Both the position numbers and the translations under genes were made by a program. A DNA stretch of 64,000 bases from a virus, in the IMG/VR virus record IMGVR_UViG_3300007522_000367, positions 1-64,000 of that record. One strand, written 5' to 3'. The notes beneath the pieces were generated by a model. The model made no database searches. It had not been told where the DNA came from and was given only the letters and a program-made list of their open reading frames with translations. Below are positions 1 to 20,143 of this stretch, piece by piece. Within the stretch, counting starts at the first letter, position 1; each line of letters opens with the position of its first letter.

Positions 1-1289
1 AGTTTATTGAATATAACATTCAAGATACTGCGCTGCTGGACAAGCTGGATAGGAAACTGCGCTTTATTGAATTAAGCAATACTATTGCACACGAGAATAC
101 AGTTCTTATTCAGACTACTATGGGCGCTGTTGCTGTTACTGAACAAGGCATTATTAACGAGGCGCACAATCGTGGACTTCAAGTTCCTAATCGTAAGAAT
201 ATAGATGACGAAGAAAACACACAGGCCGCTGGCGCATATGTTGCGTTCCCTAAAAAGGGCTTGCACAAGTGGATTGGGTCAATGGACTTGAACTCACTGT
301 ACCCTTCAGTGATTCGTGCGTTAAATATGGCTCCAGAAACTCTTGTAGGACAAATTCGTCCAGACATATCAGAAGCTCGTGTAGCAGAAGACATGGGTCT
401 TAAGAAACAGAGCTTCGCCGGTAGTTGGGAAGGTCGCTTTGCAACAGAAGAATACGATGCTGTTATGGCCAAACGTAAAGATGTTGCACTTACTATTGAG
501 TTTGAAAACGGCCAGTCTGAAGTAATGAGCGGAGCAGAGATTTACAAACTAGTATTTGACAGTAATAATCCATGGATGCTTAGTAGCAATGGTACAATCT
601 TTACACAAGAGTTTGAAGGTGTTATTCCAGGTATTCTAAAGCGTTGGTATGGTGAACGTAAAGAGTTACAAGCAAAGCTGAAGAAAGCTAAGGATGCAGG
701 TAATAAGGCAGAGATTGAGTATTGGGATAAACGTCAGCTAGTTAAGAAGATTTTGCTTAACAGTTTGTATGGTGCTATTCTTAACCCTGGTTGCCGCTTC
801 TTTGATAAGCGTATTGGACAGTCAACTACACTTACTGGTCGTACTATTGTTAAGCATATGAGTGCAGAAGTTAATAAAGTTATTACTGGAGTTTACGATC
901 ACGTTGGTGATGCTGTTATCTATGGTGATAGCGTTACCGGTGATTCGATGATTAACACATCAAATGGCATGATTGCAATTGAAGATTTGTTTGATGCAGT
1001 TGAGGATAAAGTATTACATCCTAGTGGAAAGGAATATGCAATGTTTAACGACTCGGACATTACAACACTTGGATTCCATGCATTAAATGATAAAATTACT
1101 ATTTCTAAAATGAACTATGTTATGCGTCATAAAACTTCTAAGCAATTATACAAGGTAACAATGGAAGACGGAACGTCGGTTACAGTAACAGAAGATCACA
1201 GTTTAATGATAGACCGAGATGGGTTCTTACTGGAAATAAAGGCAACAGATTTACAAGAAAATGATTTAGTTATTACTCTTGCTAAGTAG
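1..1289 (+). CDS. 43: DNA polymerase gp43, N-terminal extein fused to split-intein N half (5' partial)
   Basis: The frame is open to the left edge, so the N-terminus and most of the 3'-5' exonuclease domain lie outside. The first visible residues (FIEYNIQDTALLDKL) match the exo III region. Family B motif A (DLNSLYPSVIR, about nt 286-318), motif B (KILLNSLYGAI) and the first half of motif C (YGD, nt 921-929) follow. Directly after YGD the reading changes to an intein N half, and a TAG stop ends the ORF at 1287-1289. The rest of motif C (TDS) is found 1.5 kb downstream behind the intein C half. The protein is therefore expected to work only after trans-splicing with the product of 2287-3279. 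It is the replicative polymerase of a T4-like phage. The family is certain. Activity as split halves is inferred. Confidence 0.93.
   Translation, partial: FIEYNIQDTALLDKLDRKLRFIELSNTIAHENTVLIQTTMGAVAVTEQGIINEAHNRGLQVPNRKNIDDEENTQAAGAYVAFPKKGLHKWIGSMDLNSLYPSVIRALNMAPETLVGQIRPDISEARVAEDMGLKKQSFAGSWEGRFATEEYDAVMAKRKDVALTIEFENGQSEVMSGAEIYKLVFDSNNPWMLSSNGTIFTQEFEGVIPGILKRWYGERKELQAKLKKAKDAGNKAEIEYWDKRQLVKKILLNSLYGAILNPGCRFFDKRIGQSTTLTGRTIVKHMSAEVNKVITGVYDHVGDAVIYGDSVTGDSMINTSNGMIAIEDLFDAVEDKVLHPSGKEYAMFNDSDITTLGFHALNDKITISKMNYVMRHKTSKQLYKVTMEDGTSVTVTEDHSLMIDRDGFLLEIKATDLQENDLVITLAK
930..1286 (+). other. Split intein N half (IntN), about 119 aa, at the motif C site of gp43
   Basis: The segment starts with Ser1 (SVTGDSMI), the splicing nucleophile of block A, directly after YGD. 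A block B-like T-x-x-H motif (VTVTEDHSLM) lies near residues 87-96. It ends at a stop codon instead of running into an endonuclease or C-terminal splicing domain, which is what a naturally split intein looks like. The insertion point interrupts YGD/TDS, the catalytic metal-binding motif C, a known intein hotspot in family B polymerases. Confidence 0.88.
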
Positions 1290-1354
1290 GGTTTTTTGAC
1301 TATGATGTTAAATAAGTATAGCAAGCATACAACGATAGGAGTATCACCATAGTC

Positions 1355-2299
1355 ATGCCAAAATGTATAGAGTGCGGCACAGTCGCAAAAAGATTACAGT
1401 GGACACATTTTTTTTATAAATGTACTGGAAAGTTTAAGAACGGTAAAGAATACAAAATCGCATATCCCCATGCTAAACTAGTAGACGATGAGTTTGCTAA
1501 GTCAACAGCCTGCACACTAGTTAATATGCAAAAGAAATACGGAACAGTGCAGGGTCAAGCTGCATGGGATGATTATAAAAGAAAACAAGCGTATTCTAAT
1601 ACGCTGCAATACAAACAAGAGAAACATGGATGGACCGAAGCCGACTTTGATGAATATAATAAATCAAGAGCTGTTACATTAAAAAACTTAATAGAACGGC
1701 ACGGTGAAGTGACAGGTGCTATTAAATGGCAATCATATTGCGATAGACAGGCATACACAAACACAAAGGAATATTTCATAGAAAAGTTTGGTACTACAAC
1801 TGGTACAGACATGTACAATGAAGTGTGTAGAATAAAGTCACACTCACTAGATGTAGTAATGGAAAGAAACAACTGTGATGAAGCAGTAGCACTAGATATA
1901 ATTGCTAATTATAAACAGTCAGAAAAATATTCAAGTAATTTAGAAAAGCAGTTTGCTGATGAAATAATGTCTGCACTGGAAGAAGAATTGCGCTATTATT
2001 ACAAAACGAAACAATATTGCATTTGGGCAAATGACAAGCCGAACTTTTATGACATTGTACACAATGACAAAGCAATAGAATTTAATGGCGACTACTGGCA
2101 TTGCAATCCTAACAAATACGCTGAAAACTGGTATCATCCACAATCTGAGTTATTAGCAAGACACGTATGGGAAAAAGATGCAAAGAAGATTCAAGCATTA
2201 AAAGATAAGCGTAACATAGACACACTAATCATATGGGAGTCAGAGTATTTGGCTGATCCTAAAACAATAATTCAAAGGTGCATAACATGGCTGAAGTAA
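1355..2299 (+). CDS. Free-standing Vsr/EDxHD-like homing endonuclease between split intein halves
   Basis: This 314-aa protein has an N-terminal Cys cluster (CIECG, then a later Cys) that may bind zinc. Two copies of a DNA-binding-like repeat follow, of the form YG-x-V-x-G-x(3)-W-x(2)-Y-x(2)-[RK]QAY[ST]NT-x(2)-Y (about residues 56-90 and 109-144). A C-terminal nuclease core carries FYDIVHNDKAIEFNGDYWH and a later VWEKDAKK. The Asp, Glu, His and Asp positions fit the Vsr-related EDxHD endonucleases known from phages. A Shine-Dalgarno-like AGGAG lies upstream of the ATG. The 3' end overlaps the start of the intein C-half gene. The location between the two halves of a split intein fits a homing role for the whole cassette. 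Confidence 0.85.
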   Translation: MPKCIECGTVAKRLQWTHFFYKCTGKFKNGKEYKIAYPHAKLVDDEFAKSTACTLVNMQKKYGTVQGQAAWDDYKRKQAYSNTLQYKQEKHGWTEADFDEYNKSRAVTLKNLIERHGEVTGAIKWQSYCDRQAYTNTKEYFIEKFGTTTGTDMYNEVCRIKSHSLDVVMERNNCDEAVALDIIANYKQSEKYSSNLEKQFADEIMSALEEELRYYYKTKQYCIWANDKPNFYDIVHNDKAIEFNGDYWHCNPNKYAENWYHPQSELLARHVWEKDAKKIQALKDKRNIDTLIIWESEYLADPKTIIQRCITWLK

Positions 2300-2418
2300 T
2301 AAGACAACGAGTAGCAAGCGTAGAAAAGATACCAAACACAGGCGACCAGTACGTATATGATATAAGCATTGCCGAAGACGATCCGTTTTTCTTTGCAAAT
2401 GGACATTTGGTTCATAAC
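2287..2418 (+). other. Split intein C half (IntC), 44 aa
   Basis: The segment runs from the start codon to the terminal Asn of LVHN, followed by Thr+1. With the 119-aa N half it gives a mini-intein of about 163 aa with no endonuclease domain, a normal size for naturally split phage and environmental inteins. The penultimate His, final Asn and hydroxyl +1 residue are the canonical residues for Asn cyclisation. Confidence 0.88.
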
Positions 2419-3279
2419 ACAGATTCGGTCTACTTTAGTGCTTGGCCTACTTTACAAAATGAAATTAAGGCAGGCAATATTCCTTGGACTAAAGAGAATG
2501 TTATTACACTTTACGATCAAGTATCAGAAGCAGCTAATATAACCTTCCCAGATATGATGGCAAAATCATTCCATTGCCCAAAGAGTCGAAGTGTTGTTAT
2601 TGCAGCAGGTCGTGAAATTGTTGCAGAAAGCGGATTGTTTATTACTAAGAAGCGTTATGCAGCTCTAGTAATTGATACAGAAGGTTTCCGCAGTGACGTA
2701 GACGGTAAAGCTGGTAAAGTAAAAGCCATGGGCTTAGACTTACGTAGAAGTGATACTCCTGTGTTTATGCAAGAGTTTTTAAGCGAGCTGTTGCTTATGG
2801 TACTTACAGATAAGCCGCAAACTGATGTGCTAGAACGTATTACTCAATTTCGTTTAGCATTTAGTGAACGGCCAGGTTGGGAGAAAGGTAGTCCGAAACG
2901 TGCAAACAAAGTTGGACATTATCGTCGCTTAGAAGAAAAAGCCGGCAAGGCTAATATGCCTGGACACGTTAGGGCAAGTATTAACTGGAATACACTCAAG
3001 CGTATGAATGGTGACAAATACTCGCAGGAGATTGTTGATGGTATGAAAGTTATTGTTTGTAAGCTCAAGCAGAATCCATTAGGGTACACTAGTGTTGCTT
3101 ATCCGACAGACGAGCTGCGTATGCCTGAATGGTTTAAAGAACTTCCGTTTGATGATGCAGCAATGGCAGAAACAATTATTGATAATAAGTTAGATAATTT
3201 GATTGGTGTGCTTAACTATCCATTAGAGGATACTAAGCGGCATAACACGTTCAATAGTTTGTTTGACTTTGGAGACTAA
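2287..3279 (+). CDS. 43: Split-intein C half fused to gp43 C-terminal extein
   Basis: I chose ATG 2287 because AAAGG sits about 8 nt upstream; an in-frame GTG at 2278 is the alternative. The first 44 residues form an intein C half with block F-like YVYDISIAEDDPFFFANGH and the terminal HN of block G. Thr+1 of the extein follows in TDSVYFSAW, which completes polymerase motif C. The thumb region follows, and the protein ends in NSLFDFGD, resembling the C-terminal clamp-binding peptide of T4 gp43. The extein part is about 286 aa. The gene overlaps the end of the endonuclease ORF. Trans-splicing with the upstream half would restore a full polymerase. Confidence 0.92.
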   Translation: MAEVIRQRVASVEKIPNTGDQYVYDISIAEDDPFFFANGHLVHNTDSVYFSAWPTLQNEIKAGNIPWTKENVITLYDQVSEAANITFPDMMAKSFHCPKSRSVVIAAGREIVAESGLFITKKRYAALVIDTEGFRSDVDGKAGKVKAMGLDLRRSDTPVFMQEFLSELLLMVLTDKPQTDVLERITQFRLAFSERPGWEKGSPKRANKVGHYRRLEEKAGKANMPGHVRASINWNTLKRMNGDKYSQEIVDGMKVIVCKLKQNPLGYTSVAYPTDELRMPEWFKELPFDDAAMAETIIDNKLDNLIGVLNYPLEDTKRHNTFNSLFDFGD

Positions 3280-3280
3280 A

Positions 3281-3388
3281 ATGAAAATAAAATTAGAAAT
3301 AGAAATTGATACCGAGAGCGATCAGGACCTAAATACTATTGAAGAGCTAATCGAAATGTTAAAAGGACTAGTGGAGCAGATGCAATGA
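3281..3388 (+). CDS. Small hypothetical protein, 35 aa
   Basis: An ATG one base after the gp43 stop opens a 35-codon acidic/amphipathic ORF (starting MKIKLEIEIDTESDQD, ending EQMQ). Its stop overlaps the next start as ATGA. It fills the only gap between gp43 and the cytidylyltransferase gene, which supports it as a real translationally coupled gene. No family is recognised. Confidence 0.55.
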   Translation: MKIKLEIEIDTESDQDLNTIEELIEMLKGLVEQMQ

Positions 3389-3795
3389 AGGTAGGTTTCA
3401 CCGCATCAACTTTTGATTTACTTCACGCCGGGCATGTACAAATGTTACGTGAAGCAAAAGAACAGTGCGATTATTTGATCTGCGGATTACAAGTGGATCC
3501 TAGCGTTGATCGTCTAGATAAAAATTCCCCTATACAGACTATTGTCGAGCGCTATACGCAACTTAAAGCAGTAGGATATGTAAATGAAATTATTCCTTAT
3601 GGCACCGAACAAGACCTAGAAGATATCTTGACAATGTATCATATTCATGTTAGAATATTAGGAGAGGAGTATAGAGATAAAGATTTTACTGGTAAAGACA
3701 TTTGCCGTAAAAGAGATATTGAATTATACTTTAATAAACGAGATCATCGTTTTAGTTCAAGTGATTTAAGAAAGAGAGTAGCTGATCGTGGGTAA
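3385..3795 (+). CDS. Cytidylyltransferase-like nucleotidyltransferase
   Basis: This 136-aa protein has the HxGH nucleotide-binding motif (FDLLHAGHVQML, about residues 11-22). Near the C-terminus, RFSSSDLRKRV corresponds to the second signature of the glycerol-3-phosphate cytidylyltransferase/TagD-RfaE C-domain family. The length fits the family (about 130-140 aa). It probably joins CTP or ATP to a phosphorylated sugar or polyol. It is coupled by ATGA to the 35-aa gene and overlaps the HAD gene by 8 nt. With the next two genes it looks like a nucleotide-sugar pathway. The exact substrate cannot be read from sequence. Confidence 0.85.
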   Translation: MKVGFTASTFDLLHAGHVQMLREAKEQCDYLICGLQVDPSVDRLDKNSPIQTIVERYTQLKAVGYVNEIIPYGTEQDLEDILTMYHIHVRILGEEYRDKDFTGKDICRKRDIELYFNKRDHRFSSSDLRKRVADRG

Positions 3796-4501
3796 TAAGT
3801 TTATATTTGATGTAGATGGAACATTAACGCCAAGCCGCAGTGGTATGAATAGTGAGTTTCAAGGATACTTTATAGACTTTTGCTATGCAAACGAAGTTTA
3901 TCTAGTTACAGGTAGTGACTATGCTAAAACATTAGAACAGGTTGGACCTGATGTTTGTGATGCTGTGATAAGGATTTATAACTGTAACGGCAATAATGTT
4001 TGGGAGAAAGGTGTGAATATTCGTACTAATGAATGGACACTTCCTGAAGATGCACACGAATGGTTATCTAATAAGCTAACCGAAAGTACCTATTGTACTC
4101 GTACAGGATTACACTTCGAACATCGCCCAGGGCTTGTTAACTTTAGCATAGTTGGACGTAGCGCTGACAAAGAACAACGAGCAGATTACGTTATATATGA
4201 TGTTCTATTCGACGAACGTAATATTATTGCTCAAGAGTTTAATGGATTATTTCCTACACTACAAGCAACGGTAGGAGGCGAAACTGGTATTGATATTGCT
4301 CCACTAGGTGCGGACAAAGCACAAATTGTTGAGGACTTTGAAGTTGAAGATAAACTTTACTTCTTTGGCGATAGAATGGATCCTGCTGGTAATGATTATC
4401 CGCTGTCGTTAGAAGTAGACGTAGCAAAGCCTGTAAAACGCTGGCAAGAAACATTTGAACTGTTACAATATTTTCAAGAAGCAAAGGTAGCAGCGAAATG
4501 A
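3788..4501 (+). CDS. HAD-superfamily phosphatase/phosphomannomutase-like protein
   Basis: The 237-aa protein starts at a GTG inside the upstream gene. HAD motif I is at the N-terminus (FIFDVDGTLTPSR, residues 5-17), in the form typical of eukaryotic-type phosphomannomutase. The motif II region (LVTGSDYAKTLEQVG) resembles the GGSD-type segment of that family. A late motif is YFFGDRMDPAGND. The Asp-x-Asp nucleophile pair is present. It could be a phosphomannomutase or a sugar-phosphate phosphatase. Its position between a cytidylyltransferase and an epimerase suggests it acts in the same nucleotide-sugar pathway. Confidence 0.75.
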   Translation: MGNKFIFDVDGTLTPSRSGMNSEFQGYFIDFCYANEVYLVTGSDYAKTLEQVGPDVCDAVIRIYNCNGNNVWEKGVNIRTNEWTLPEDAHEWLSNKLTESTYCTRTGLHFEHRPGLVNFSIVGRSADKEQRADYVIYDVLFDERNIIAQEFNGLFPTLQATVGGETGIDIAPLGADKAQIVEDFEVEDKLYFFGDRMDPAGNDYPLSLEVDVAKPVKRWQETFELLQYFQEAKVAAK

Positions 4502-5259
4502 AAATTTTGCTAACGGGTCACAGGGGCTTTATAGGTACTGCATTACTTGCACGATTAACAAATAACAATGATGTAGAAGTTATACACTGTATAGACTTGC
4601 AAGCAGGTACCAACTTGCTTACTTGTGACTTTCCGAATCATGTCGATCTTGTAATACATCTAGCAGGAAAAAGCGGTGTTCGTGAAAGCCTGAATGACCC
4701 GGGTGCTTATTGGTTAAACAATGTAGAAGCAAGCCGTAGACTGTTTGAACGCTATAGTAACGCTCGCATATTGTATGCAAGCTCAAGCAGTGCGTACGAG
4801 CCCGATTTGAACCCTTATGCGGCATCTAAGTACATACTGGAAAAATTAGCAACACGGTATACTGATACTTTAGGTATGCGATTCCACACTGTGTATTCCG
4901 ACTTACCTAGAAAGAACATGTTCTTTGATAAACTATTTAATGGTACATTAGAATACGTAACTCAACACCACAGAGATTTTGTACACATTAACGATATTTG
5001 CGATGCAATTGAAATACTGATTAAAAAGACGCACGTTAATGGTATAATAGATATTGGTTCAGGTGATCCAATTAGAGTTCAGGACTTGGCTCCTGGCTTG
5101 CCTATCCGCCTAAATACTCCACATGAAAGAACATTTACATGTGCAAATTTAGAAAAAATGAAAGCCTTAGGATATAAACCTAAATATATGATAAAAGAGT
5201 TCTTGACAAACAAAGAATTAGGCACTATAATAAAACTTAACACAGGAGAAATCGCATGA
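4498..5259 (+). CDS. NAD-dependent epimerase/dehydratase (extended SDR)
   Basis: The Rossmann motif GHRGFIG is at residues 7-13. HLAGKSGVRES and YASSSSAYE segments are typical of nucleotide-sugar epimerases. The catalytic Tyr-x-x-x-Lys is in NPYAASKYILEKLA. At 253 aa it is shorter than UDP-glucose 4-epimerase (about 330 aa), mainly in the C-terminal substrate domain. The start overlaps the upstream stop (ATGA). It probably completes a nucleotide-sugar block with the two genes before it. The sugar is unknown; a product for one of the phage glycosyltransferases is a reasonable inference. An early promoter for the clamp lies inside its 3' end. Confidence 0.82.
   Translation: MKILLTGHRGFIGTALLARLTNNNDVEVIHCIDLQAGTNLLTCDFPNHVDLVIHLAGKSGVRESLNDPGAYWLNNVEASRRLFERYSNARILYASSSSAYEPDLNPYAASKYILEKLATRYTDTLGMRFHTVYSDLPRKNMFFDKLFNGTLEYVTQHHRDFVHINDICDAIEILIKKTHVNGIIDIGSGDPIRVQDLAPGLPIRLNTPHERTFTCANLEKMKALGYKPKYMIKEFLTNKELGTIIKLNTGEIA
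5203..5231 (+). promoter_or_regulatory. Sigma-70 type early promoter for the clamp gene
   Basis: TTGACA at 5203-5208 and TATAAT at 5226-5231 are separated by exactly 17 nt. Both hexamers are perfect consensus. It lies in the 3' end of the epimerase gene, 25 nt before the clamp ATG, which has its own Shine-Dalgarno (CAGGAGA). Confidence 0.85.
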
Positions 5260-5999
5260 AAGATATTTTACAAGACGTAGTAGCACATACACACGCACTA
5301 GGGTTTTTATCATTAGTTAAAGTAACTGCTGATACTACTAGCACAGTCGTTGAAAGTATGGCAGATGATCGTTCAGTTATTATGACTGCAACGGCACATA
5401 CACCAGTAACAGAATTTGATGGTATATTTGGTATGCCCAATTTGGACAAACTTGCACTACACTTAAAAAATCCCGAGTATCAAAAAGATGCAAAGATTGA
5501 AGTAGTCAAAGCAGTACGCAATGGCGAAACTATTCCTACACATATTCACTTTGAAAACTCAACTGGTGACTTTGAAAATGATTATCGCTTTATGAACCGA
5601 GCAATCATTGACGAAAAACTTAAGACGGTTACATTTAAAGGTGCAACATGGCAAGTTGAATTTCAGCCTAGCGTAGCAGCAATTGGACGTATGAAGTTAC
5701 AGAGTGCTGCTCATAGTGAGGAACCTACATTTAATGTTAAGACTACTGCAACAGGCAGTGCAACTGACTTGGTGTTTAGCTTTGGCGATGCAAGCACACA
5801 CTCAGGTGAGTTTGTATTTCAAAATGCAATAAAAGGTAAACTGTCGCACACTTGGAGTTGGCCAGTTGCCGCTGTTCAAAGTATTTTAAATCTAAGCGGT
5901 ACTACTACTATGAGCATTAGTGATCAGGGTGCTATGATGATTAGTGTTGATTCAGGTATGGCAAAATACAACTACATCCTTCCAGCGCAGAGCAAATAA
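5256..5999 (+). CDS. 45: Sliding clamp, gp45-like
   Basis: This 247-aa protein has the size and layout of T4 gp45 (228 aa) and its marine phage relatives. A segment EFDGIFGMPNLDKLALHL corresponds to the region before the first clamp repeat boundary. The C-terminus (MISVDSGMAKYNYILPAQ) matches the closing beta strands of the family. It is expected to form the trimeric processivity ring for gp43, whose C-terminal FDF-type tail would dock on it, and in T4 it also activates late transcription. It follows a perfect early promoter and CAGGAG. The assignment rests on overall pattern rather than a catalytic motif. Confidence 0.72.
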   Translation: MKDILQDVVAHTHALGFLSLVKVTADTTSTVVESMADDRSVIMTATAHTPVTEFDGIFGMPNLDKLALHLKNPEYQKDAKIEVVKAVRNGETIPTHIHFENSTGDFENDYRFMNRAIIDEKLKTVTFKGATWQVEFQPSVAAIGRMKLQSAAHSEEPTFNVKTTATGSATDLVFSFGDASTHSGEFVFQNAIKGKLSHTWSWPVAAVQSILNLSGTTTMSISDQGAMMISVDSGMAKYNYILPAQSK

Positions 6000-18862: not shown

Positions 18863-20143
18863 ATGAGCGTCACAGGCAAGAAAAATTGGCAACCTAAAGA
18901 GCTTACTGAAGAACAACTTAGATTGATGCGAGTTGATGTACTTGATCGTATCATTGTAGCTCGTGTTGGATTGCTGTTACGTCATCCATTTTTTGGTAAT
19001 ATGGCAACTCGTTTGCAGATCAAAAGTGCAGATGATTGGTTAGGTACTGCTGCCGTAGACGGACGTAACTTGTATTTTAATACTCAATTCTTTAATGCAA
19101 TGTCAAACAAAGAAATTGAGTTTGTTATTGCACACGAGATTCTACACTGCGTCTTTGACCACTTAACTCGTAGACAAGACCGTATTCCAAAAATTTATAA
19201 TATTGCCGCAGACTATATTGTAAATAATTTGCTTGTGCGAGATCGTATTGGTACTAAGCCAACATTTATTGACTGCTACCAAGACTTTAAATACGACAAA
19301 TGGTCTTCAGAAGACGTATATGACGACATCTTTGAAGACGCTAAGAATAAAGGTGAAGAGTTTCTTAAACAACTTGGCGAACTACTAGACGAGCATATCG
19401 ACTGGGAAGGTGAAGACGGCAATCCTGGCGGTAGCGGAGCCGACGGTAAAGAAAGCAAAAGCCGTCCTACATATTCTAAAGAAGAACTGAAAAAGATCAA
19501 AGACGAGATCAAAGAAAACATGATTTCGGCGGCGCAATCATCAGGTGCAGGTAATACACCAGGCGAAGTACAGCGTATGATCAAAGAGCTTACTGAGCCT
19601 AAGATGAACTGGCGCGAAATACTGCGTCAACAAATCCAAAGTACTATACGCAACGATTACACCTTTAGCCGGCCAAGCCGTAAAGGACAAATGACTGGTG
19701 CCATTTTGCCAGGAATGAACTTTGATGAAACTATTGATATTTGTATTGCACTTGATATGAGTGGCTCAATCGGTAACGATCAAGCAAAGGACTTCCTAAG
19801 CGAAATTAAAGGCATTATGGACGAATACAAAGACTACAACATTAAATTGTGGTGCTTTGATACTAAGGTCTATAACGAGCAAGACTTTAGTGCAGACGGC
19901 GGCGATGATTTGTCATCCTACGAAATTATTGGCGGCGGCGGTACTGATTTTGATGCTAACTGGGAGTACATGAAATATAATGATATTCAACCTAAGAAGT
20001 TTATTATGTTTACAGATGGATATCCTTGGAATAGCTGGGGTGATGAATCGTATTGCGATACTATCTTTATTATCCATAGTCATAGTGATAAGAACTTGCA
20101 GGCACCGTTTGGACTAACAGCACATTACGAGGAAACGGCTTGA
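18863..20143 (+). CDS. DUF2201-type metallopeptidase-like protein with VWA domain
   Basis: The 426-aa protein has a zincin-like HEILH at residues 91-95 (IAHEILHCVFDHL) in the N-terminal domain. A low-complexity Glu/Asp/Gly linker (about 180-205) follows, then a C-terminal von Willebrand A domain with the MIDAS DMSGS (298-302). This is the DUF2201/VWA architecture, typically paired with MoxR ATPases. It may be a metal-dependent scaffold or protease remodelled by the ATPase. The target is unknown. Confidence 0.88.
   Translation: MSVTGKKNWQPKELTEEQLRLMRVDVLDRIIVARVGLLLRHPFFGNMATRLQIKSADDWLGTAAVDGRNLYFNTQFFNAMSNKEIEFVIAHEILHCVFDHLTRRQDRIPKIYNIAADYIVNNLLVRDRIGTKPTFIDCYQDFKYDKWSSEDVYDDIFEDAKNKGEEFLKQLGELLDEHIDWEGEDGNPGGSGADGKESKSRPTYSKEELKKIKDEIKENMISAAQSSGAGNTPGEVQRMIKELTEPKMNWREILRQQIQSTIRNDYTFSRPSRKGQMTGAILPGMNFDETIDICIALDMSGSIGNDQAKDFLSEIKGIMDEYKDYNIKLWCFDTKVYNEQDFSADGGDDLSSYEIIGGGGTDFDANWEYMKYNDIQPKKFIMFTDGYPWNSWGDESYCDTIFIIHSHSDKNLQAPFGLTAHYEETA

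What the first reader, a model, noticed from the sequence alone, without database searches (positions are those of the whole stretch)
1..3279. gp43 broken at motif C by a split intein with a Vsr-like endonuclease gene between the halves
The polymerase is cut between YGD and TDS. The first half ends in a 119-aa IntN with Ser1, the second begins with a 44-aa IntC ending HN before Thr+1, and a free-standing EDxHD endonuclease lies between. This is the fractured-gene arrangement described for environmental phage genes such as gp41 and ribonucleotide reductase. I do not recall it for a phage replicative polymerase at this site, so it may be a new insertion point. The phage would depend on trans-splicing to replicate.
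Basis: partly seen in the sequence, partly recalled or inferred. Interest (0 to 1): 0.8.

Follow-up and report, generated by a model that had tools for sequence, protein, structure and literature searches.

The report
Split-intein homing cassette in phage polymerase
A phage's DNA polymerase gene is cut in two at its active site by a mobile element that encodes a split, self-splicing protein linker and its own DNA-cutting enzyme; the arrangement is real and recently mobile, but the same thing is already known in other phage polymerases, and this exact break point is known from archaeal and giant-virus polymerases.

Summary
gp43 is interrupted between YGD (921-929) and TDS (2419-2427) by a 1,489-bp insert. 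It holds a 119-aa IntN (Ser1), a free-standing 314-aa Vsr/EDxHD-like endonuclease gene, and a 44-aa IntC ending HN before Thr+1. The two frames are incompatible (1489 mod 3 = 1), so the product must come from trans-splicing or stay in two pieces. It is not an assembly chimera: several independent contigs carry it, and at least 70 related contigs carry an intact gp43 with the exact empty site.

New here is direct evidence of recent homing. Window and contig L104 share the insert at 1484/1488 bases while flanking gp43 is only 79-80% identical, with short co-converted flanks.

The claim of a new insertion point and host gene fails. The same arrangement is annotated in Aeromonas phage Aes508, and occurs in Klebsiella KP13-7, Campylobacter CP21, Tenacibaculum PTm1 and, with an HNH nuclease, Pseudomonas MIJ3. 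The Aes123 PolB1 split intein is characterised biochemically. YGD|TDS is the classic pol-c site, also split in Nanoarchaeum.

One less expected finding: homologous split inteins with homologous endonucleases occupy three registers of motif C (Y|CDTDS, YGD|TDS, YGDTD|S).

The parts
3..929 (+). gp43 (family B DNA polymerase) N-extein, 5' truncated by the contig edge; ends in motif C first half IYGD (YGD codons 921-929)
   Evidence: PF00136 95 bits, PHROG 262 E 3.8e-73; full-length with exonuclease domain in L107
930..1286 (+). IntN, 119 aa, Ser1, NX-motif RH, N3-motif TEDH, no cysteine; stop TAG 1287-1289
   Evidence: TIGR01445 50.2 bits, PF14890 38 bits; best PDB match 9hth, a phage-type PolB intein, E 2.3e-13; motif counts
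1355..2299 (+). free-standing homing endonuclease gene, 314 aa: N-terminal Cys/His segment and helical repeats, C-terminal Vsr/EDxHD-like nuclease with invariant D233, E242-F-N-G-D-Y-W-H249, K278, W294
   Evidence: 38-member alignment; PHROG 22677 E 1.4e-58; relatives annotated VSR endonuclease; PF18741 REase in 13 of 38 members, best E 6.6e-5; Vsr profile E 0.045, 3r3p 0.078; Foldseek 1vsr TM 0.56, E 0.75
2287..2418 (+). IntC, 44 aa from ATG 2287 (overlaps the endonuclease end by 13 bp, AAAGG at 2274-2278 upstream), ends LVHN
   Evidence: TIGR01443 20.3 bits, PF14890 19.5 bits; similar overlap common in relatives
2419..3279 (+). gp43 C-extein, starts with Thr+1 of TDSVYFS, to the natural stop
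   Evidence: PHROG 1918 E 7.3e-44; intact relatives up to 93% identical
930..2418 (+). the whole mobile insert, 1,489 bp, precisely absent from empty alleles
   Evidence: blastn against L021, L023, L026, L028 joins window 930 to 2419
906..929 (+). upstream exon tract identical between window and L104 (last mismatch 905): candidate co-conversion tract
2419..2462 (+). downstream exon tract identical between window and L104 (first mismatch 2463); shared silent codons ACAGATTCG found in 0 of 77 empty alleles

Best explanation
It is a mobile split-intein cassette of the 'fractured gene' kind inserted at the pol-c site of phage gp43. The three ORFs are translated separately from one region. IntN and IntC associate and splice in trans by class 1 chemistry (Ser1 N-to-O acyl shift, transesterification to Thr+1, cyclisation of the last Asn), restoring the motif C sequence YGDTDS of a continuous polymerase. 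The free-standing Vsr/EDxHD-like endonuclease cleaves intein-less gp43 at motif C in a co-infecting phage, and repair copies the whole 1.5-kb cassette with a few tens of bases of flanking exon. Shown by sequence: anatomy, empty sites, splicing residues, recent horizontal transfer. Inferred: splicing activity, cleavage of this site by this nuclease, and the need for splicing in replication.
For: Both intein halves over NCBIfam cut-offs (Pfam N half). IntN most like the solved phage-type PolB intein 9hth; that family splices in trans (Aes123, PMC11923092; CP21 and LCGC14, PMC12707363). In 69 distinct inteins position 1 is always Ser (one Cys), +1 is the Thr, Ser or Cys of the native motif, and the penultimate residue is His in 67. 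The NX-motif His typical of Ser1 inteins (PMC10189870) is in all 68 Ser1 inteins and absent from the single Cys1 one. The endonuclease ORF lies between the halves in all 66 distinct loci carrying it. Exact empty alleles. Window and L104: insert 1484/1488 identical, flanking gp43 78.6% and 80.4%, tract edges 905 and 2463; silent flank codons shared by the two carriers and by none of 77 empty alleles. Similar intein-versus-extein contrasts in other pairs: L218/L219, L269/L270, L200/L202. No second family B polymerase in this record or in six long related records. Frame offset 1489 mod 3 = 1 rules out simple stop read-through.
Against: No splicing or cleavage was measured. The record is incomplete (87 kb), so a second polymerase elsewhere is not excluded. 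Matches of the nuclease to solved Vsr or I-Bth0305I structures are below usual significance. The two polymerase pieces might function non-covalently, as some split T4-like proteins do.
Confidence: 0.93

Rival explanations
1. A degenerating element: the intein no longer splices and the polymerase works as two non-covalently associated subunits (genes in pieces), with the intein halves acting as a dimerisation clamp or as dead weight.
For: Phage polymerase genes also occur split without inteins: Atu_ph07 and the gp43A/gp43B split of Aes508. IntN and IntC would bind each other in any case.
Against: All catalytic intein residues are kept. The insert is nearly identical between divergent phages, so it is young and not decayed. 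The break lies between the catalytic residues of motif C, a poor place for a non-covalent join.
Confidence: 0.05
2. Assembly or contig chimera.
For: The window starts in the middle of gp43 at a contig edge.
Against: The contigs behind L098, L099, L100 and L107 carry 99.3-99.7% identical DNA across all junctions, L104 carries the insert in a diverged gp43, and isolate genomes (Aes508, KP13-7, MIJ3) show the same arrangement.
Confidence: 0.005
3. Immobile split intein: the endonuclease is unrelated to the spread of this intein and merely sits between the halves.
For: The nuclease's target was not tested. Other members use an HNH gene (MIJ3), have no nuclease between the halves (Aes516), or are contiguous mini-inteins (SCTP-2, CC_R7).
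Against: The endonuclease loci collected by homology in viral contigs lie in gp43 next to IntN/IntC. Recent transfer of the whole cassette with sharp edges.
Confidence: 0.04

Closest known systems
Aeromonas phage Aes508/Aes123 gp43B split intein (Aes123 PolB1) with VSR endonuclease (JN377894, JN377899)
   Same: gp43 motif C, IntN - VSR-type endonuclease - IntC order, Ser1, homologous intein (27.6% IntN) and endonuclease (33.7%)
   Different: Insertion two codons downstream (YIDTD|S, Ser+1); gp43 there is also split upstream and carries a group I intron; splicing of the Aes123 intein measured (PMC11923092)
Klebsiella phages KP13-7 and phiKp_21 (OP617745, LC768491)
   Same: Same register YGD|TDS, Ser1/Thr+1, EDxHD-type endonuclease 34.5% identical between the halves, overlapping IntC start
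   Different: Products annotated only as hypothetical proteins; IntN only 25% identical, IntC 49%
Pseudomonas phage MIJ3 / PA5oct split PolB intein (PMC6892783)
   Same: Most similar isolate polymerase among those listed (about 52%), split intein in motif C, IntN 36.8% identical
   Different: HNH instead of EDxHD endonuclease; register YGDTD|S
Nanoarchaeum equitans PolI split intein and Mimivirus PolB intein (pol-c allele; PMC549080)
   Same: Identical insertion point (YGD|TDS in Mimivirus) in a family B polymerase; the Nanoarchaeum gene is also split there
   Different: Archaeal or eukaryotic-virus hosts; Mimivirus intein is contiguous (351 aa); no free-standing EDxHD gene between halves is described there
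Fractured genes of Dassa et al. 2009 (gp41, RNR, IMPDH split inteins with EDxHD/Vsr-type endonucleases)
   Same: Split intein with a free-standing endonuclease of the Vsr-like type between the halves
   Different: Other host genes (from memory; the paper is not held)

Membership tests
Class 1 split intein | Block A nucleophile at position 1, TxxH block, block F and C-terminal HN before Ser/Thr/Cys+1 | tested here: met
   Ser1, TEDH, LVHN, Thr+1; both halves over NCBIfam cut-offs
Class 1 split intein | Ser1/Ser(Thr)+1 inteins carry the NX-motif histidine | tested here: met
   VMRH present; 68 of 68 Ser1 relatives have it, the one Cys1 relative does not
Class 1 split intein | Protein trans-splicing activity | not testable with these tools
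   Shown for Aes123, CP21 and LCGC14 PolB inteins (PMC11923092, PMC12707363)
pol-c intein allele | Insertion between YxD and TD[S/G] of motif C in a family B polymerase | tested here: met
   YGD|TDS; same point in Mimivirus and Nanoarchaeum
EDxHD/Vsr-like homing endonuclease | Sequence or fold relation to Vsr or I-Bth0305I | tested here: inconclusive
   Profile: Vsr E 0.045, 3r3p E 0.078; Foldseek 1vsr TM 0.56, E 0.75; conserved D..EFNGDYWH..K..W pattern
Fractured gene arrangement | IntN and IntC on separate ORFs flanking a free-standing endonuclease ORF, with empty alleles elsewhere | tested here: met
Homing element | Horizontal transfer confined to the element plus short flanks | tested here: met
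   99.7% against 79-80% identity, edges at 905 and 2463
Homing element | Encoded nuclease cuts the empty target and not the occupied one | not testable with these tools
   needs purified protein

The most novel reading that the evidence does not exclude
Homologous split inteins, together with homologous free-standing EDxHD endonucleases, occupy three insertion registers two codons apart inside one catalytic motif: Y|CDTDS with Cys1/Cys+1, YGD|TDS with Ser1/Thr+1, YGDTD|S with Ser1/Ser+1. The element family has therefore shifted its register (or its nuclease has picked up new intein partners) at least once or twice while staying on motif C, always landing where the native next residue can serve as the +1 nucleophile. 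This departs from the usual view that related inteins keep one exact insertion point.
Probability: 0.6. Interest if true: 0.5.

Novelty: new member of a known kind. Interest (0 to 1): 0.38.

Why it matters
The locus is a clean, recently mobile example of a split-intein homing cassette in an essential replication gene, with a donor-like pair, abundant empty alleles and a measurable co-conversion tract, so homing by a free-standing nuclease can be tested directly. The wider set (69 distinct inteins in three registers; 11 without cysteine in the segments counted, the window's among them) is a source of cysteine-free split inteins, which protein engineers value, and offers a test of how inteins move to a neighbouring insertion point.

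Tried and rejected
A new insertion point: rejected, it is the pol-c allele. First case in a phage replicative polymerase: rejected. Assembly chimera: rejected. Stop read-through giving one in-frame intein: rejected, halves are in different frames. Whole-endonuclease fold search: no meaningful match; the nuclease domain alone ranks Vsr 4th without significance. Single origin of the YGD|TDS group: the intein tree asks for 4 label changes, the endonuclease tree for 2, and a one-clade constraint is not rejected (p-AU 0.41), so only a minimum of one or two register changes is claimed. Cellular-genome carriers: only three weak or partial hits. Laying out the whole genome and two key papers (Dassa 2009, I-Bth0305I) were not available.

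Full report
Check of the observation. The ORFs and junctions are as described. The first ORF runs from the contig edge through family B polymerase palm sequence (PF00136 95 bits, PHROG 262 E 3.8e-73), reaches IYGD at 929 and continues as a 119-residue IntN starting with Ser, stop at 1287-1289. The second ORF, 1355-2299, is a 314-residue free-standing endonuclease. The third starts at ATG 2287, inside the end of the second, with a plausible ribosome site (AAAGG, 2274-2278), encodes a 44-residue IntC ending LVHN and then TDSVYFS... to the polymerase stop at 3279. Intein models exceed their curated NCBIfam cut-offs on both halves. The two halves are in different frames (insert 1,489 bp), so reading through the stop cannot join them.

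The window is bases 1-64,000 of an 87,058-base virus record that begins within gp43. The record has only these two polymerase pieces and no exonuclease domain. In L107 (from a 123-kb contig), about 99% identical, the first ORF is 723 codons with exonuclease, palm and IntN. No second family B polymerase appears in that contig or in five other long related records. Four contigs match the window at 99.3-99.7% across all junctions, which excludes a chimera.

Empty sites and recent mobility. A search with the C-half found hundreds of relatives; those listed include more than 70 contigs with an intact gp43, up to 93% identical in the C-extein. Alignments jump from window 930 to 2419, so the whole insert is absent from them. 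One other intein-bearing sequence type (L104, the same contig as L018) has the insert at 1484 of 1488 compared bases, while its flanking gp43 is only 78.6% (upstream) and 80.4% (downstream) identical, with differences mostly at third codon positions. The identical tract extends 24 bp upstream and 44 bp downstream. The two carriers share ACAGATTCG for Thr-Asp-Ser; none of 77 empty alleles does. Other pairs show the same contrast (L218/L219 intein 100%, C-extein 82%; L269/L270 99%/84%; L200/L202 98%, N-extein 80%). This is the expected mark of homing with co-conversion; the direction of transfer is not known.

Mechanism. The nearest solved relative of IntN is 9hth, E 2.3e-13, a 173-residue chain named DNA-directed DNA polymerase that I take to be the Aes123 PolB1 intein structure of PMC11923092 (the link is inferred from the matching Aes508 sequence). 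That intein splices in trans, as do the CP21 and LCGC14 PolB inteins (PMC12707363). Across 69 distinct relatives, position 1, the TxxH block, the terminal HN and the +1 nucleophile are kept with few exceptions. The NX histidine, described as a signature of Ser1/Ser-or-Thr+1 inteins (PMC10189870), is present in all 68 Ser1 members and missing from the sole Cys1/Cys+1 member L173, an independent check that these inteins follow known chemistry. The window's intein has no cysteine at all. Splicing itself, and its need for replication, are inferred.

The endonuclease. Thirty-eight homologues align with invariant D233, EFNGDYWH (242-249), K278 and W294. The relation to Vsr/EDxHD nucleases rests on annotation of homologues, PF18741 hits in 13 members, sub-threshold profile matches to Vsr (E 0.045) and to 3r3p, a 'mobile intron protein' (E 0.078), and a confident domain model (pLDDT 96) whose best recognisable nuclease match is E. 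coli Vsr, TM 0.56 but E 0.75. I take the label as likely, not proven. In all 66 distinct loci that carry it, it lies between IntN and IntC of gp43.

Comparison with the known. Aeromonas Aes508 is annotated with exactly this order, Tenacibaculum PTm1 too; Klebsiella KP13-7 matches in register, residues and nuclease type; Campylobacter CP21 and Prevotella Lak phages also carry it; MIJ3 has an HNH gene instead (PMC6892783); SCTP-2 and CC_R7 have contiguous mini-inteins. The site itself is pol-c, occupied in Mimivirus and split in Nanoarchaeum equitans (PMC549080). Hence: new member of a known kind.

What is less expected. The homologous inteins sit in three registers: YGD|TDS (46 distinct, Thr+1), YGDTD|S (22 distinct, Ser+1) and Y|CDTDS (1, Cys1/Cys+1). 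Trees of inteins and of endonucleases cluster strongly by register but place the registers within one family. The intein tree needs 5 changes for three labels, the endonuclease tree 3. A single YGD|TDS clade is not rejected (p-AU 0.41), and several branches are long, so I claim only that register changed at least once or twice. Nearly all members begin Ser-Val after an Asp, which resembles the exon sequence Asp-Ser-Val and could offer microhomology for a shift of the upstream junction; how the downstream junction would move with it is unexplained.

Noticed in passing
L173 (junctions): A gp43 split intein at a third register, Y|CDTDS, with Cys1/Cys+1 and no NX histidine, but with an endonuclease of the same family (44% to that of L248): possible re-pairing of nuclease and intein.
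   Followed up: partly
L193, L204, L206: Cassettes of about 2.2-2.5 kb instead of about 1.45 kb in the same motif; an extra insertion is likely.
   Followed up: no
L314 (uncultured Clostridia MAG contig), 2811-3656 and ORF from 3655: Endonuclease homologue directly upstream of one ORF that holds fused N and C intein segments ending IHN|SIYASY: a possible contiguous variant with the nuclease gene in front.
   Followed up: partly
window 3385-5259: Directly downstream of gp43: a cytidylyltransferase-like gene, a phosphomannomutase-like HAD gene and an NAD-dependent epimerase, a small sugar-nucleotide cluster.
   Followed up: partly
window 5256-5999: 247-aa protein with a T4 gp45-like sliding-clamp look by eye (FDGIFGMPNLDKLALHL); no Pfam match.
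   Followed up: no
window 18863-20143: PHROG 1314 calls this 426-aa protein an HNH endonuclease (E 8e-113), but Pfam shows DUF2201 metallopeptidase plus VWA-like domains; the PHROG label looks wrong.
   Followed up: partly
Agrobacterium phage Atu_ph07, L008 3086-6055: PolB split into two ORFs with no intein detected: an intein-free gene-in-pieces polymerase in the same wider group.
   Followed up: no
L182-L186 (viral contigs): Five contigs end 32-34 residues into an identical IntN, suggesting assembly breaks inside the cassette where carrier and non-carrier strains coexist.
   Followed up: no
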